Source of the DNA: Vreelandella lionensis
Lineage (GTDB): Bacteria; Pseudomonadota; Gammaproteobacteria; Pseudomonadales; Halomonadaceae
Assembly (NCBI RefSeq): GCF_002087295.1
Contig: NZ_MWVI01000100.1
Location: forward strand, 1-64,000
Length of the DNA: 64,000 nt
Direction: 5' to 3'
Every line of letters begins with the position of its first letter. Within the stretch, counting starts at the first letter, position 1. Both the position numbers and the translations under genes were made by a program. Below the pieces are notes generated by a model, which saw only the letters and a list, made by a program, of their open reading frames with translations, did not search any database and was not told the DNA's origin. Shown here in pieces: positions 1 through 28,225 of this stretch.

Positions 1-13
1 GCCTGGCGCACCA

Positions 14-46
14 TAAAAAAACCCCGGCCACTGCTGGCCGGGGTTT
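14..46 (-). terminator. Rho-independent terminator of the minus-strand sRNA
   Basis: A 12-bp GC-rich stem (19-30 with 35-46) is followed, on the minus strand, by a seven-T run. On the plus strand the tail is poor in T, so the minus orientation is the functional one. Confidence 0.8.
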
Positions 47-161
47 CATCAGGTCCTCCATAATCCTACTTCACGAACTTCCTGTTCATGCTTCCTTGTG
101 CGCCGCAAGCACTCCCTGCTTGCACTTCCTTGTAACGCCGTCCCTGCGTTATGTGCACACA
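14..161 (-). ncRNA. Candidate CsrA/RsmA-titrating small RNA (RsmY/RsmZ/CsrB type)
   Basis: Read on the minus strand, this stretch holds about eight GGA motifs. Three sit in the loops of clear hairpins: AACGC/GCGTT with an AGGGACG loop (about 134-150), GCAAGC/GCTTGC with loop AGGGAGT (about 105-123), and CATGAAC/GTTCGTG with loop AGGAA (about 72-90). The transcript would end in a GC-rich hairpin (19-46) followed by seven T residues, the normal architecture of RNAs that sequester CsrA/RsmA. A TATAGG -10-like box lies at 168-173, so the start is near 161; no good -35 is seen, as expected for an activator-dependent promoter. A TTTATC/GATAAA inverted repeat (221-236) lies about 67 bases upstream of that start. 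The start point and the family name are inference. Confidence 0.62.
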
Positions 162-309
162 GTGCGCCCTATAGCCGTTGAGTTATCTAACATAGGATAT
201 GAAACGCTAAAAGTTTTTGCTTTATCGGCGGATAAACACACGACACCTTGCAGTTGCTTCAATCAAAAACATACAATCATGCACGTTTGTAACTTATCAG
301 GACATACCC

Positions 310-972
310 GTGACGACGAGCCACTCCCCTTTCACAACCACCACGGCAAAACGCCTCGCCCCCTGGCTAGCGGCTGCGCTGGGCATCGCCTTGGCCACAC
401 CAGCGTTAGCTGATAACTGGGAAGGCACCTTTGGTGCTGGCGCCACCTACGCCCCTGATTACCTGGGTAGCGACGATTACGATATCCAAGCGCTGCCAGT
501 GCTCAATCTTACCTACGGCGACCAGCTCTCCATCAACCTGCGCGACGGTATTGCTTGGCACGCAATTCGCCAGGGCAACTGGACCGCTTCTCCGTTTATC
601 GGCTATACCTTCGGGCGCGATAACGAAGGCGACATCAGCCGCTTTGAGAAAGTCGATGGCGGTGCCACTCTTGGCCTGCGCTTGAGCTATCAACAAGGCC
701 TTTGGCGTTACAGCGTCGCGGGCAGTACGGCGGTGACGGGGGATGTCGAAGGCGCTAACTTCACAGGTGATGCAGCCCTGCGCCTGCCCATGAGCGAACG
801 CACGCTCTTCACTCTGACACCGATGTGAGCTACTCCAATGAAAAATGGACAGAATCGTTCTTTGGCGTCTCGGCACAAGACAGCGCCCGCAGCGGCATAG
901 CGGCTTACACACCTGATGGCGGTTACTGGCGGGCAGGCATTAACCGGCGTATCGTTGACCTACCGCTTCTAA
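310..972 (+). pseudogene. MipA/OmpV-family outer-membrane protein, broken
   Basis: The product resembles MltA-interacting protein (MipA/OmpV), a beta-barrel outer-membrane protein. A GTG at 310 with AGGA seven bases upstream gives a signal peptide ending ATPALA before DNWEGTFGAG. Family sequence follows (YAPDYLGSDDYDIQALPVLN), then a -1 frameshift near 817, after which the 825 frame continues with SYSNEKWTESFFGVSAQ and ARSGIAAY. A second break near 943 leads to GVSLTYRF and a stop at 970-972. The YRF ending is the usual end of the family, so about 40 residues of the last strands appear to be deleted between WRAGIN and GVSLTYRF. The frameshifts could be sequencing errors, but the missing block could not. 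The gene is therefore called broken. Confidence 0.65.
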
Positions 973-990
973 GTTGCAATATAAGGTGGG

Positions 991-1020
991 AAAACGGCGG
1001 GCCCACCACCCGCCGTTTTT
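991..1020. terminator. Bidirectional terminator between mipA-like gene and DJ-1 gene
   Basis: An 11-bp inverted repeat (991-1001 with 1009-1019) with A and T tracts on either side lies between two convergent genes, so it can serve both strands. Confidence 0.75.
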
Positions 1021-1900: not shown

Positions 1901-1964
1901 GTACTATTTAAGTACAATAAACATACAATATTATCTTGTACATCATTTAACCCTACCCTATAGT
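1901..1964 (+). promoter_or_regulatory. Promoter and upstream inverted repeat of the plus-strand sRNA
   Basis: TTGTAC at 1936-1941 and TATAGT at 1959-1964 are separated by exactly 17 bases, a good sigma-70 arrangement with a start near 1971. A GTACT-N5-AGTAC inverted repeat at 1901-1915 is centred about 63 bases upstream of that start, where activators of Rsm/Csr sRNAs usually bind. It does not match the textbook GacA box, so its role is a guess. Confidence 0.45.
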
Positions 1965-1970
1965 TAAAAA

Positions 1971-2136
1971 GGTTCGCGGCAGGGATACCGCGTCACAAGG
2001 GAATGTACGATAAGGATCAGCGAATATTACCCACGGAAGGAGTCAGCTCAGGATGAGCTACGTGACACCACGGAAGGCTAGGTACTAGAAGCATTGGTGC
2101 TTAAAAAAGCGTCCTCATTTATGAGGGCGCTTTTTC
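1971..2136 (+). ncRNA. Second candidate CsrA/RsmA-titrating small RNA
   Basis: No protein is encoded here, but seven GGA motifs occur within about 105 bases. Two sit in the loops of perfect hairpins: CGCGG/CCGCG (1975-1992, loop CAGGGATA) and AGCTC/GAGCT (2045-2059, loop AGGAT). The others (about 1999, 2013, 2033, 2039 and 2072) are in predicted single-stranded AAGGGA, AAGGA or CGGAAGG contexts. The segment starts just after a good promoter and ends at a strong terminator, giving an RNA of about 165 nt. This matches RsmX/Y/Z or CsrB-type RNAs that bind CsrA. A similar element lies 1.8 kb away on the other strand. Confidence 0.55.
2104..2135 (+). terminator. Rho-independent terminator of the plus-strand sRNA
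   Basis: A 15-bp stem including one G-U pair (2104-2118 with 2121-2135) ends in five T residues. Confidence 0.8.
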
Positions 2137-2211
2137 ATGGGTGCAAGGCTGGCTCATCACACCTTGGCCGCGTATCACAAGGCCATTCATGCAGACAGCA
2201 ATAGGTAGAGA

Positions 2212-3172: not shown

Positions 3173-4045
3173 CTAACGCGAACGACGCCTTTTCATTCGG
3201 TACATTTTCACGTCTGCATAATTCAGTAGCGTATCAGCATCTTTGCCGTCTTCTGGGTAGTTGGCCACACCCACACTCCAAGGCGGCATGCCGATATCCC
3301 GCATATCCGCCCCTCCTACCTCTGCCGCGAGCGGTTCAGAGAGCACCTCCAGTATTTGGGCAGCTTTTTCGATGGCGGCCTCTTTAGAGTGAACGTCGGT
3401 TAATATCACCGTAAATTCATCGCCCCCCATACGTGCCACCGTATCAGTCTCACGCACGCAGCAACTCAAACGGCGAGCTACCTCGCAAAGCACCGCATCT
3501 CCCACCGCGTGGCCATGCACATCGTTAATTCGTTTGAAGTCGTTTACATCTAAAAACAGCAGCGCAAAACGGTTTTGATAGCGCCTTGCCGTACTTAACG
3601 CCGCCTCCAAACGATCGTAAAACAGTGAACGATTGGTCAGTTTGGTGAGCGGATCGTGATGTGCCAGAAAGCGCAGGTCGTCTTCCGCTTGCACCTGTGC
3701 GGTTACATCTCGAGCAACGCCAATTCTTACTTGCTCTTCATCCGACCAACGAGCCGACCAAAGCACATACACCACGCTGCCATTTTTATGCAGATAACGG
3801 TTACGAAAATCGAGATGGGGCTGCCCATTCATGACTCGCTTAATAGAGGCTTTGGTAATAGCCAGATCTTCCGGGTGCATATAGTGAGTAATTAGCGTGC
3901 CTACCAGCTCATCGGCACGGTAGCCCAGCAGCGATTCGCAGGCATCGCTGACAAAAAGAATCTGATGATCCGCATCCACGACGAACACAGTGTCGAGCAT
4001 CAAGTGAATCAGCTTAGGATAGAGCGCCTGCAAATCAACGGACAT
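3173..4045 (-). CDS. PAS-GGDEF diguanylate cyclase
   Basis: The product (290 residues from the ATG at 4045) is a soluble diguanylate cyclase making c-di-GMP from GTP. A PAS sensor domain spans about residues 10-118 (LDTVFVVDADHQILFVSDA, then the PAC-like RNRYLHKNGSVVYVLWSA). The GGDEF domain spans about 125-290, with DPLTKLTNR near 131-139 and the intact active-site GGDEF at 207-211. An inhibitory I-site RETD at 198-201 lies the standard five residues upstream, so product inhibition is expected. An open frame extends upstream of 4045 but runs through the tRNA-Ser terminator and the island end, so the shorter start is preferred. No membrane segment is seen. Confidence 0.9.
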   Translation of the reverse strand: MSVDLQALYPKLIHLMLDTVFVVDADHQILFVSDACESLLGYRADELVGTLITHYMHPEDLAITKASIKRVMNGQPHLDFRNRYLHKNGSVVYVLWSARWSDEEQVRIGVARDVTAQVQAEDDLRFLAHHDPLTKLTNRSLFYDRLEAALSTARRYQNRFALLFLDVNDFKRINDVHGHAVGDAVLCEVARRLSCCVRETDTVARMGGDEFTVILTDVHSKEAAIEKAAQILEVLSEPLAAEVGGADMRDIGMPPWSVGVANYPEDGKDADTLLNYADVKMYRMKRRRSR

Positions 4046-4181
4046 GGACAGCCTAGTTGGGTGGCTTTTCTCGAGTATAGACGGATCGAGGGTTGCCTGG
4101 ACAACTCTTATGGTGGTGAGAGGGGAATTCTGCACGCTGAGGCATGAGCACTGTTTGTTTATTCGCGAAAATCTCAGACAC

Positions 4182-4217
4182 AAAAAAGCCCGCTGATTGC
4201 TCAGCGGGCTTTTTTTA
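4182..4217. terminator. Original tRNA-Ser terminator, now displaced by the island
   Basis: A 15-bp inverted repeat with A and T tracts on both sides lies just left of the left attachment repeat. In the unoccupied chromosome it would directly follow the 3' end of the minus-strand tRNA-Ser gene. Confidence 0.8.
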
Positions 4218-4224
4218 AATTCTG

Positions 4225-4241
4225 TGGCGGAGAGGGAGGGA
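4225..4241. repeat. Left attachment repeat (copy of tRNA-Ser 3' end)
   Basis: The 17 bases are identical to 11552-11568. They correspond to the CCA end, the acceptor 3' strand and part of the T-arm of tRNA-Ser, the usual crossover target of tRNA-using tyrosine integrases. Confidence 0.88.
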
Positions 4242-4300
4242 CTATCTGATTTTCTACCTAACCCGCTGAAATGCTTGATATACGACGATATCTTGCTATT

Positions 4301-4324
4301 TTGGGACAAATCTTTGGGACAAAT
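4301..4324 (+). promoter_or_regulatory. Paired arm-type repeats near the left end
   Basis: TTGGGACAAAT occurs twice (4301-4311 and 4314-4324) with a 13-bp period, between the left core and the integrase start. The same pair with the same period occurs near the right end (11477-11500). They are likely integrase arm-binding sites; this is inferred from position and symmetry. Confidence 0.5.
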
Positions 4325-4337
4325 TAGCGGAAAACGT

Positions 4338-5858
4338 ATGGCTGATAATCTAATTTTGAAAGGCTCCACTTGGCATGTTCGGTTGGAATTGCCTAACGAT
4401 GTTCGTCATGCGTTCGGAAATCGTAGGAAGCTAACTAAATCTCTCAAAACAGGAAACAAAGCCGAGGCACACGCTAGAAAACTGCCAATCCTAGCGGAAT
4501 GGAAATCAGTTATAACAAAAGCACGAAACGGAATAACTGCTGAAGAGCTTGAAAATGAGTTGCATCTTCTAAAAAACACAAGTGAACATCTCAGAGGTTT
4601 TTTTGAATCCACACTTATAAAACATATACGTGGCGAAAAAATATTTACAAAAGAAAATGCTTTGAGCCTTATCAAGACCTTTGATAAAGACATTTCAACA
4701 ATATTTAAAAACGATACAGAAAAAGCTAAAATTTGGCGTCATCGGTTTTACCAAATGGGTAGCGATTTTTACGACCAAAGTGATGATAAGCCCAAAACAG
4801 ATTTAGTTGCCGATTTTTTAAAAGCAGTAGAAGAATTTGTTGTTATTAAAAATGATTATATATCAAAAACCAAAGGTTACAGCAAAGAGCAAACAGAAAC
4901 AATCACCCGCATTTTTAATAAGCCTGAAACCTATTCTCCAAAATCTCCGTTTACACCACAACGGCTTGAAGCCTTCGCCAAGCACCAAGTAGAAGTTAAG
5001 GGGCTTGCACAAAAAACCGTGGATAGTTATGTTTCCAAACTAAAGATTTTAAAAAAATATCTTGAAGAGGAAAAGCTAGAATTAACTTTTGAAATCTATC
5101 AACAGTTTTTGGACAGCTTAAGTAGTATTCAAGCAAAAACAAAGCAAAACCATATCCATGCTGGCTCGGGTTTTCATAAATGGGCTTCAAAATACGATTT
5201 AGACTATAAAAATCGCTATGATACGAGAATCAACCCATTTTTAGGCCATGAGTTACCCAATAGTAAGAAAAAAGGCAAAAAGAAAGAAGATAAAAGACTT
5301 GCTTTTAAAAACGAAGAAATTAAAAAACTTTATGAGTTTGCTATATCGAAGCAAAAACATCAAGTGGCGTATGCTGTCAAAATAGCTAGTTTAACGGGCT
5401 GTCGCATTGAAGAGGTATGTAGGCTCACAAAAAGGCATATCGTTGCTGAAAATGGGATTTTAAGCCTATATATTGAGGAAGGAAAGACAGATGCTAGCAT
5501 TAGAAAAATTCCGATTCATCCAAGCTTGAAACCGCTTGTTGAGCAGTTGGTAAAAAATGCCGACTCCGAGGGCTATCTAATACACTCATCGGGCGGTAAT
5601 AAATATGGAATCCGTTCAGACTCAATAAGCAAAGCTTTTGGCCGATTAAAAAAAGAACTTGGCTACGATTATCGTTATGTTTTTCATAGCATACGAAAAA
5701 CGGTAATAACCACTCTACAGCATAATGATGTTAAACCACTGATAATTGCATCAATCGTCGGTCACGAAACTGGAACCATCACTTTTGATATATATAGTGA
5801 CGGAGCCAGCCCACAACAAAAACTAGAAGCGATAAAGACATTACCGAGACTTGAATAA
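4338..5858 (+). CDS. Tyrosine site-specific integrase
   Basis: The product (506 residues from the ATG at 4338) would catalyse integration and excision at tRNA-Ser. The N-terminus (MADNLILKGSTWHVRLELP) is the short arm-binding type seen in DUF6538-like integrases, with a core-binding SAM-like region near 225-310. The catalytic domain shows Arg356 (TGCRIEEVCRL), Lys383 (EEGKTDASIRK), His450-x-x-Arg453 (FHSIRK), His476 (VGHETG) and the nucleophile Tyr486 (FDIYSDG), so all key residues are present. An open frame begins at 4197 but would pass through the attachment core and arm repeats, so 4338 is preferred. The gene is AT-rich and lysine-rich, unlike the host genes. Confidence 0.93.
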   Translation: MADNLILKGSTWHVRLELPNDVRHAFGNRRKLTKSLKTGNKAEAHARKLPILAEWKSVITKARNGITAEELENELHLLKNTSEHLRGFFESTLIKHIRGEKIFTKENALSLIKTFDKDISTIFKNDTEKAKIWRHRFYQMGSDFYDQSDDKPKTDLVADFLKAVEEFVVIKNDYISKTKGYSKEQTETITRIFNKPETYSPKSPFTPQRLEAFAKHQVEVKGLAQKTVDSYVSKLKILKKYLEEEKLELTFEIYQQFLDSLSSIQAKTKQNHIHAGSGFHKWASKYDLDYKNRYDTRINPFLGHELPNSKKKGKKKEDKRLAFKNEEIKKLYEFAISKQKHQVAYAVKIASLTGCRIEEVCRLTKRHIVAENGILSLYIEEGKTDASIRKIPIHPSLKPLVEQLVKNADSEGYLIHSSGGNKYGIRSDSISKAFGRLKKELGYDYRYVFHSIRKTVITTLQHNDVKPLIIASIVGHETGTITFDIYSDGASPQQKLEAIKTLPRLE

Positions 5859-27943: not shown

Positions 27944-28225
27944 GTGATCGTACGCTGGGAAACCGACCATGACTATGTGTTGGTGCATATTCACCAGGAT
28001 ATGTTCGGCGACTGGATTTTCAGCCGCGCCTGGGGGCAAATCGGCACCCAGTTTGGCGGGCTGAACCACCAGCTGGCGGATAGCCTGGAGCAAGCACAGA
28101 TGTGGTTGGAGGATGAAACAACGATTCAATCCTCCCGCGGATTCCGCAAGGTGCTGGAAGCCGCCGACCACACACCGGAAGGCCAGGAAGCGATGCGCCA
28201 GCTGTCGCTATTAGACGCACTCTGA
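27944..28225 (+). CDS. Small WGR-domain protein
   Basis: A stand-alone 93-residue protein with the WGR fold. It shows the core pattern: an early RWE, then DYVLVHIHQDMFGDW, then FSRAWGQIGTQFGG and a late SSRGFRKVL. WGR domains occur in PARPs and in bacterial proteins linked to nucleic acids, but the small version has no assigned role. I choose the GTG at 27944 because AAGGAG lies six bases upstream; an ATG at 27938 abuts that site. It is divergent from pdxB. Confidence 0.7.
   Translation: MIVRWETDHDYVLVHIHQDMFGDWIFSRAWGQIGTQFGGLNHQLADSLEQAQMWLEDETTIQSSRGFRKVLEAADHTPEGQEAMRQLSLLDAL

What the first reader, a model, noticed from the sequence alone, without database searches (positions are those of the whole stretch)
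14..161. CsrA-sponge small RNA gene read on the minus strand at the window start
A stretch without a gene holds about eight GGA motifs; three lie in hairpin loops with perfect or wobble stems, followed by a strong terminator. This is the design of RsmY/RsmZ/CsrB RNAs, but the sequence does not match any one I can recall in detail, so it may be unannotated in this genus. The broken mipA-like gene is on the opposite strand.
Basis: partly seen in the sequence, partly recalled or inferred. Interest (0 to 1): 0.6.

Follow-up and report, generated by a model that had tools for sequence, protein, structure and literature searches.

The report
CsrA-sponge small RNA family of Halomonadaceae
A stretch without protein genes at the window edge very probably makes a small RNA that soaks up the global regulator CsrA; it belongs to an uncatalogued family of such RNAs found in salt-loving bacteria of the Halomonas group, some of which carry about ten copies.

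Summary
Window 14-163 (minus) has eight GGA motifs, three in hairpin loops, and a strong terminator. A covariance model finds it in 135 of 275 Halomonadaceae genomes. Of 123 distinct copies, 120-121 keep GGA in each of the three loops; all 28 modelled pairs show compensatory change. No Rfam family reaches threshold. The host (probably Vreelandella) encodes one CsrA and a GacA orthologue. A CsrA-sequestering RNA of CsrB/RsmZ type is by far the best reading; transcription and binding are untested. (2) Four of 30 chosen genomes carry 10-11 hits of at least 45 bits. (3) The same genome holds further candidates: window 1970-2138 (+) and two beside GacA sites. A review lists the sRNA of Halomonas anticariensis as unknown. 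New member of a known kind.

The parts
14..163 (-). CsrA-sponge small RNA gene, about 150 nt; 5' end inferred from the -10-like hexamer, 3' end from the terminator T-run
   Evidence: R1 covariance model 168.4 bits over 13-169 (the window copy is one of the 40 the model was built from); structure and GGA conservation in 123 copies
188..199 (-). conserved palindromic promoter box TATCCTATGTTA (family consensus TAACCTAGGTTA)
   Evidence: 2 mismatches here; at most 3 mismatches in 46 of 54 own-genus copies and 42 of 69 others, shuffles 8.9% and 4.3%
168..173 (-). putative -10 hexamer TATAGG
   Evidence: sequence; TaTAAgG in the own-genus consensus of 54 copies; not found by the sigma-70 scan
134..150 (-). 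hairpin H1, loop AGGGACG
   Evidence: 78.0% of cells paired, all 5 pairs with double changes; GGA in 120 of 123 loops; not found by RNAalifold on the unfitted alignment
105..123 (-). hairpin H2, loop AGGGAGT
   Evidence: 86.0% of cells paired, all 6 pairs with double changes; GGA in 121 of 123 loops
72..90 (-). hairpin H3, loop AGGAA
   Evidence: 98.5% of cells paired, all 7 pairs with double changes; GGA in 121 of 123 loops
14..47 (-). intrinsic terminator, 13-pair stem and T-run
   Evidence: 94.1% of cells paired in its 10 modelled pairs
1970..2138 (+). second candidate Csr-type small RNA in the window, 7 GGA, hairpins CGCGGCAGGGATACCGCG and AGCTCAGGATGAGCT, terminator about 2104-2135
   Evidence: weak R1 match, 14.6 bits; fold and GGA count; relatives with GGA kept and a variable number of repeat modules
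1912..1941 (+). conserved promoter region of the second RNA, with GTACAA...TTGTAC; -10-like TATAGT at 1959-1964
   Evidence: alignment with L153-L158

Best explanation
Window 14-163 (minus) is a stand-alone small RNA gene of the Csr/Rsm type. RNA polymerase starts about 6 nt after a TATAGG -10 element, probably helped by a factor that binds the palindromic box centred near -32, and stops at the terminator. The roughly 150-nt RNA shows three GGA hairpin loops and several single-stranded GGA sites, so each RNA can hold several CsrA dimers and free their target mRNAs. Shown: sequence, structure conservation, covariation, presence of CsrA and of a GacA orthologue. Inferred: transcription, CsrA binding, effect on targets, the bound factor. 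Own-genus copies appear not to be driven directly by GacA, because the GacA site seen in many copies of other genera is missing.
For: Stable fold, z -4.65. Homologues by BLAST in 26 of 36 genus relatives (one of them, G007, only by 28 bases). R1 hits at E 1e-4 in 135 of 275 family genomes. 90.7% of cells paired against 74.0% after shuffling and 30-45% after sliding; 28 of 28 pairs with double changes; 587 double-change cells against 188.5. GGA in 120/121/121 of 123 hairpin loops, 5-10 GGA per copy. One CsrA, one residue different from the published Halomonas hydrothermalis CsrA. One UvrY/GacA orthologue, 55% identity to E. coli UvrY. Stand-alone: in other genera the same RNA sits at several different places of a genome. 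UAS and box statistics.
Against: No transcript or binding data. A2 was fitted to the R1 structure, which inflates the pair counts; RNAalifold on the unfitted alignment A1 found part of H2, H3 and the terminator, not H1. The 14-174 minimum-energy fold lacks H3. GGA number alone is near what composition allows (517 of 5000 plain shuffles reach it). The sigma-70 scan found no promoter here. 15 of 82 own-genus genomes gave no R1 hit. The box-binding factor is unknown, and lack of a GacA site does not exclude indirect GacA control.
Confidence: 0.92

Rival explanations
1. A Csr-type sponge that is still under direct GacA control through a degenerate site, so that its circuit is the ordinary Gac-Rsm one and the TAACCTAGGTTA box is only an auxiliary element.
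For: In other genera 38 of 69 copies have a GacA-like site, 18 of them exactly 8 bases upstream of the usual place of the same box; GacA orthologue present.
Against: 0 of 54 own-genus copies have a site with 3 or fewer mismatches, below the shuffle rate of 6.1%; 0 of 74 matches (duplicates included) with 2 or fewer in a wider upstream stretch. The same genome does hold perfect GacA sites beside other GGA-rich RNAs.
Confidence: 0.25
2. A 5' leader or attenuator of a downstream gene rather than an independent small RNA.
For: A structured element ending in a terminator; the contig stops 13 bases after it, so the downstream side cannot be read here.
Against: In the relatives read, the sequence after the terminator differs from copy to copy and copies lie at different places of the genome. 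Downstream genes were not annotated systematically.
Confidence: 0.03
3. Chance GGA-rich intergenic sequence with a terminator of a neighbouring gene.
For: GGA count is only moderately above shuffles (23 of 2000 dinucleotide, 517 of 5000 plain).
Against: Conservation and covariation over 123 copies, and a promoter box at a fixed place.
Confidence: 0.01

Closest known systems
RsmY (Rfam RF00195), RsmZ/PrrB and RsmX of Pseudomonas
   Same: 100-150 nt (recalled), GGA in hairpin loops and between them, intrinsic terminator, several copies in one genome; RsmY is the only Csr-type Rfam model listed for this stretch up to E 10
   Different: 22.1 bits against a gathering score of 57, so membership is not shown; own-genus copies lack the GacA upstream activating sequence and have another palindromic box
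CsrB/CsrC of Enterobacteria
   Same: many GGA motifs in loops that sequester CsrA (general knowledge)
   Different: about half the length or less (recalled lengths); no CsrB or CsrC match in the window or in 20 loci of this family
RsmZ1-7 and RsmY1-2 of Azotobacter vinelandii; RsmX1-5 of Pseudomonas syringae
   Same: expanded sets of Csr sponges in one genome (PMC7366521, passages)
   Different: whether these are related in sequence to the present family was not tested; some Halomonadaceae genomes reach 10-11 hits of one family

Membership tests
Csr/Rsm CsrA-sequestering sRNA (functional class) | multiple GGA motifs, several in hairpin loops | tested here: met
   8 GGA, 3 in loops; loops keep GGA in 120-121 of 123 copies
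Csr/Rsm CsrA-sequestering sRNA (functional class) | conserved secondary structure and intrinsic terminator | tested here: met
   part of it also on the unfitted alignment
Csr/Rsm CsrA-sequestering sRNA (functional class) | does not code for protein | not tested
   no coding-potential test was run; only the covariation pattern speaks for an RNA
Csr/Rsm CsrA-sequestering sRNA (functional class) | CsrA encoded in the same genome | tested here: met
   one CsrA, PF02599 92.8 bits
Csr/Rsm CsrA-sequestering sRNA (functional class) | binds and titrates CsrA | not testable with these tools
   needs gel shift or pull-down
Csr/Rsm CsrA-sequestering sRNA (functional class) | transcribed as a discrete RNA | not testable with these tools
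   needs Northern blot or RNA-seq
GacA-activated Rsm sRNA genes | upstream activating sequence TGTAAG-N6-CTTACA (consensus recalled) | tested here: not met
   0 of 54 own-genus copies with 3 or fewer mismatches; 0 of 74 matches with 2 or fewer
Rfam RsmY RF00195 | score at or above the gathering threshold of 57 bits | tested here: not met
   22.1 bits
Other Csr/Rsm families held in Rfam 15 (CsrB, CsrC, RsmZ and the like) | score at or above gathering threshold | tested here: not met
   no match among 4227 families in this stretch or in 20 loci; none listed up to E 10 for 1-420, where overlapping matches of one clan are collapsed to the best

The most novel reading that the evidence does not exclude
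Halomonadaceae expanded one Csr-sponge family to about ten copies in some genomes, many read from a two-part promoter (GacA site plus a dedicated TAACCTAGGTTA box); in Vreelandella the surviving copies dropped the GacA site and answer to the box-binding factor alone, and a neighbouring sponge (window 1970-2138) answers to yet another factor. CsrA would then integrate at least three separate signals through differently wired sponges in one cell.
Probability: 0.45. Interest if true: 0.7.

Novelty: new member of a known kind. Interest (0 to 1): 0.5.

Why it matters
Halomonas strains are engineered as production hosts (PMC13414033, passage on H. bluephagenesis), and GacS/GacA regulates quorum sensing in H. 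anticariensis (PMC4187203, passage), yet a review table lists its Csr/Rsm sRNA as unknown (PMC7366521, passage). This family would fill that gap, and the contrast of copies with and without a GacA site makes the rewiring of a global regulator testable.

Tried and rejected
Rfam with a permissive threshold: best hit by bits NsiR1 (26.7, gathering 39), then RsmY (22.1, gathering 57); neither reaches its threshold, and the NsiR1 match lies mostly on the terminator. RF00195 over the own genome at E 10 gave 25 weak matches, the window not among them, and rang in 13 of 14 control genomes, so it is uninformative here.

R1 outside the family: in 390 order genomes (stricter filters, 7 candidates scored per genome) the hits of at least 45 bits were all in the own family; the 21 outside genomes with hits reach at most 39.6 bits. 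I read eight of those outside hits: by eye seven look like coding tails plus a GC-rich terminator, one (G523) is GGA-rich. I therefore count copies at 45 bits or more.

Box as a wider regulon: TATCCTAGGTTAGATAA with up to 3 mismatches occurs in the own genome only here (1 mismatch) and at one other place (3 mismatches), against one for the reversed control pattern; no regulon or factor could be named.

Leader of a downstream gene: not favoured, because the sequence after the terminator varies.

Literature: eight full-text searches (one search found nothing; one search listed 15 of 40 papers, one search listed 8 of 884, none of these 8 with the word Vreelandella, so that one says little). I saw listings, plus passages of PMC12889724, PMC7366521, PMC13414033, PMC5568370, PMC11882849, PMC3715671 and PMC4187203. 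None of these passages describes a Csr/Rsm sRNA of Halomonadaceae. Most subscription journals are not in the library; Tahrioui 2013 itself was not read.

Rows dropped: for A1, L030 and L031 (short matches), L033 (duplicate of L009), L025 and L027 (longer variants with extra hairpins), and BLAST hits ending before query base 280. One search kept 123 of 129 A2 rows (duplicates, or too little upstream sequence).

Full report
What is there. The minus strand of window 14-163 holds eight GGA motifs, three of them in the loops of short hairpins (read), and a 13-pair terminator stem with a T-run. The fold of 14-174 is better than all 200 dinucleotide shuffles (z -4.65), although it replaces the third hairpin by another helix. 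Folded from the likely start, all three hairpins form; the third has pair probabilities near 0.75. The number of GGA alone is weak evidence (reached by 23 of 2000 dinucleotide and 517 of 5000 plain shuffles), so the case rests on conservation.

Conservation. By BLAST, 26 of 36 relatives in the genus match (G007 only by 28 bases), and one of 21 other order genomes by 38 bases. I aligned 40 copies (A1) and built a covariance model with three hairpins and the terminator (R1). R1 finds the RNA at E 1e-4 or better in 135 of 275 genomes of the family: 67 of 82 in the own genus and 68 in others, 11 of 24 genera (ten candidates scored per genome). In 390 genomes drawn from the order, 33 have hits at E 0.001; the 12 in the family include every listed hit of at least 45 bits, and the 21 outside reach at most 39.6 bits. 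Seven of eight outside hits that I read look like chance by eye. An exact pattern over the GTDB contig collection found 37 stretches, all in records named Vreelandella, Halomonas, Litchfieldella, Modicisalibacter or Halovibrio. Contig lengths tie own-genus handles to Vreelandella records (G008:C13 to V. titanicae, G022:C2 to V. zhanjiangensis, G004:C2 to V. nigrificans), so the window's host is most likely a Vreelandella (inference).

Structure test. R1 aligned 129 matches from 88 loci (A2). Over 123 distinct rows, 90.7% of cells form standard pairs (shuffles 74.0%, slid controls 30-45%), all 28 pairs show at least one change on both sides, and 587 cells do (shuffles 188.5); none of 500 shuffles reaches any of the five measures. 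A2 is fitted to the structure, which helps these numbers; on the unfitted A1, RNAalifold found part of H2, H3 and the terminator, with double changes in 15 of 21 pairs, but not H1. GGA is kept in 120, 121 and 121 of 123 loops of H1, H2 and H3; six of the eight window GGA lie in the same column in 97-122 of 123 copies, the other two in 16 and 20.

Rfam. In the whole window only three tRNAs reach a gathering score, and nothing does in 20 loci of the family, own and relatives. RsmY scores 22.1 bits against 57.

Partners. The genome encodes one CsrA, which differs in one residue near its end from the published Halomonas hydrothermalis CsrA, and one clear UvrY/GacA orthologue at 55% identity. GacS was not sought.

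Promoter. Upstream of the RNA lies a palindromic box with family consensus TAACCTAGGTTA, about where a -35 element would be. With at most 3 mismatches it is present in 46 of 54 own-genus copies and 42 of 69 copies of other genera (shuffles 8.9% and 4.3%). Of the matches with at most 2 mismatches, 33 of 33 own-genus ones and 11 of 20 others start at the same place, -34 counted from four bases inside the model. The GacA site TGTAAG-N6-CTTACA (consensus recalled from the Pseudomonas and E. coli literature) is present with at most 3 mismatches in 38 of 69 copies of other genera, 18 of them starting at -60 on the same count, that is 8 bases before the usual box, but in 0 of 54 own-genus copies (shuffles 4.2% and 6.1%). 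A check of a wider upstream stretch found none with 2 or fewer mismatches in 74 matches, duplicates included and some cut short by contig ends. The own-genus consensus reads ATAtC.tAGGTTAGATAA and then TaTAAgG. I infer that own-genus copies lost direct GacA control and keep a second input; the factor is unknown, and the box has one other weak match in the genome.

Copy number. In a more thorough search of 30 genomes that I chose (not a random sample), 26 had hits at E 0.001; own-genus genomes had 0-4, the others 1-13. Counting only hits of at least 45 bits, four genomes (G207, G212, G140, G151) have 10 or 11; G151 is a single contig. Some of these copies are scattered, others lie in clusters. 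All 28 hits printed from G151, G212, G248 and G207 have 6-9 GGA, and by eye they end in a GC-rich hairpin followed by a T-rich tail of varying quality. Azotobacter vinelandii is listed with RsmZ1-7 and RsmY1-2 and P. syringae with RsmX1-5, RsmY and RsmZ (PMC7366521, passages), so expansion as such is known.

Other candidates in this genome. (a) Window 1970-2138 (+): seven GGA and a terminator hairpin, two hairpins with GGA loops, weak R1 match of 14.6 bits. BLAST finds it in 8 of 57 other genomes, strongly in two and in two only by 23-30 bases. An alignment with six of them shows GGA kept, most clearly in the 5' half, a variable number of repeat modules, and another conserved promoter region with GTACAA...TTGTAC. 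(b) Contig C25 near 43000: one perfect and one imperfect GacA site, then a GGA-rich stretch with terminator; matched in 33 of 36 genus relatives. The GGA-rich part lies some 200 bases after the sites with another hairpin between, so that this site drives this RNA is an inference. (c) Contig C17 near 2000: two GacA-type sites, one perfect, before a GGA-rich stretch; matched over its length in one relative (G031), elsewhere only at the sites. None of (a)-(c) has an Rfam gathering hit in the eight loci scanned. Of the three further perfect GacA sites (C5, C43, C71), C71 has a GGA-containing stretch beside it; at C5 and C43 I saw no obvious one.

Mechanism and status. The most likely role is titration of CsrA, as for CsrB/RsmZ. 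Shown: conserved structure and GGA loops, CsrA in the genome, different genomic places of the copies, promoter statistics. Inferred: transcription, binding, titration, GacA independence.

Literature. PMC7366521 lists H. anticariensis with GacS-GacA, [CsrA] and sRNA 'Unknown' (passage). Searches for Halomonas, Vreelandella or Chromohalobacter with Csr/Rsm/GacA or small RNA terms gave no paper whose listing or passages, as far as shown, describe such an RNA; the library lacks most subscription journals.

Noticed in passing
window 1-14 and loci L002, L003, L004, L005, L068, L124, L189, L252: The contig begins inside a repeat GTGCGCCAGGCATGGC... that sits a few bases after terminator T-runs here, at four other contig ends of this genome, and in other genomes. 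Its start GTGCG and the stretch GGGGGTGAAAGTCCCC... look like the 5' end of a group II intron of the class that inserts after terminators (recalled); no Rfam gathering hit.
   Followed up: partly
window 1970-2138 (+): A second GGA-rich, terminator-ended RNA candidate with its own conserved promoter region and a variable number of repeat modules in relatives.
   Followed up: partly
L096 (own contig C25:42700-44200) and L097 (own contig C17:1400-3000): GGA-rich stretches after GacA-type sites; the C25 one, which appears to lie downstream of an enolase gene (recognised by eye only), is matched in 33 of 36 genus relatives.
   Followed up: partly
window 310-1020 (+): mipA-like gene with an early stop; homologues of its N-terminal part lie close to the small RNA in 12 of the 29 loci L006-L034, one of the 12 a duplicate.
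   Followed up: partly
window 4197-5858 (+): Phage-type integrase next to a PAS-GGDEF protein (3173-4369 -) and an LPD1-domain protein (2212-2994 +), suggesting a mobile element close by.
   Followed up: no
L025 and L027: Longer variants of the small RNA with extra GGA hairpins of the type GCAAATAAGGA...TTTGC, i.e. growth by repeat modules.
   Followed up: no
window about 28053-28211 (+): The only place on the plus strand of the window with 8 GGA in 134 bases; not examined, possibly coding.
   Followed up: no
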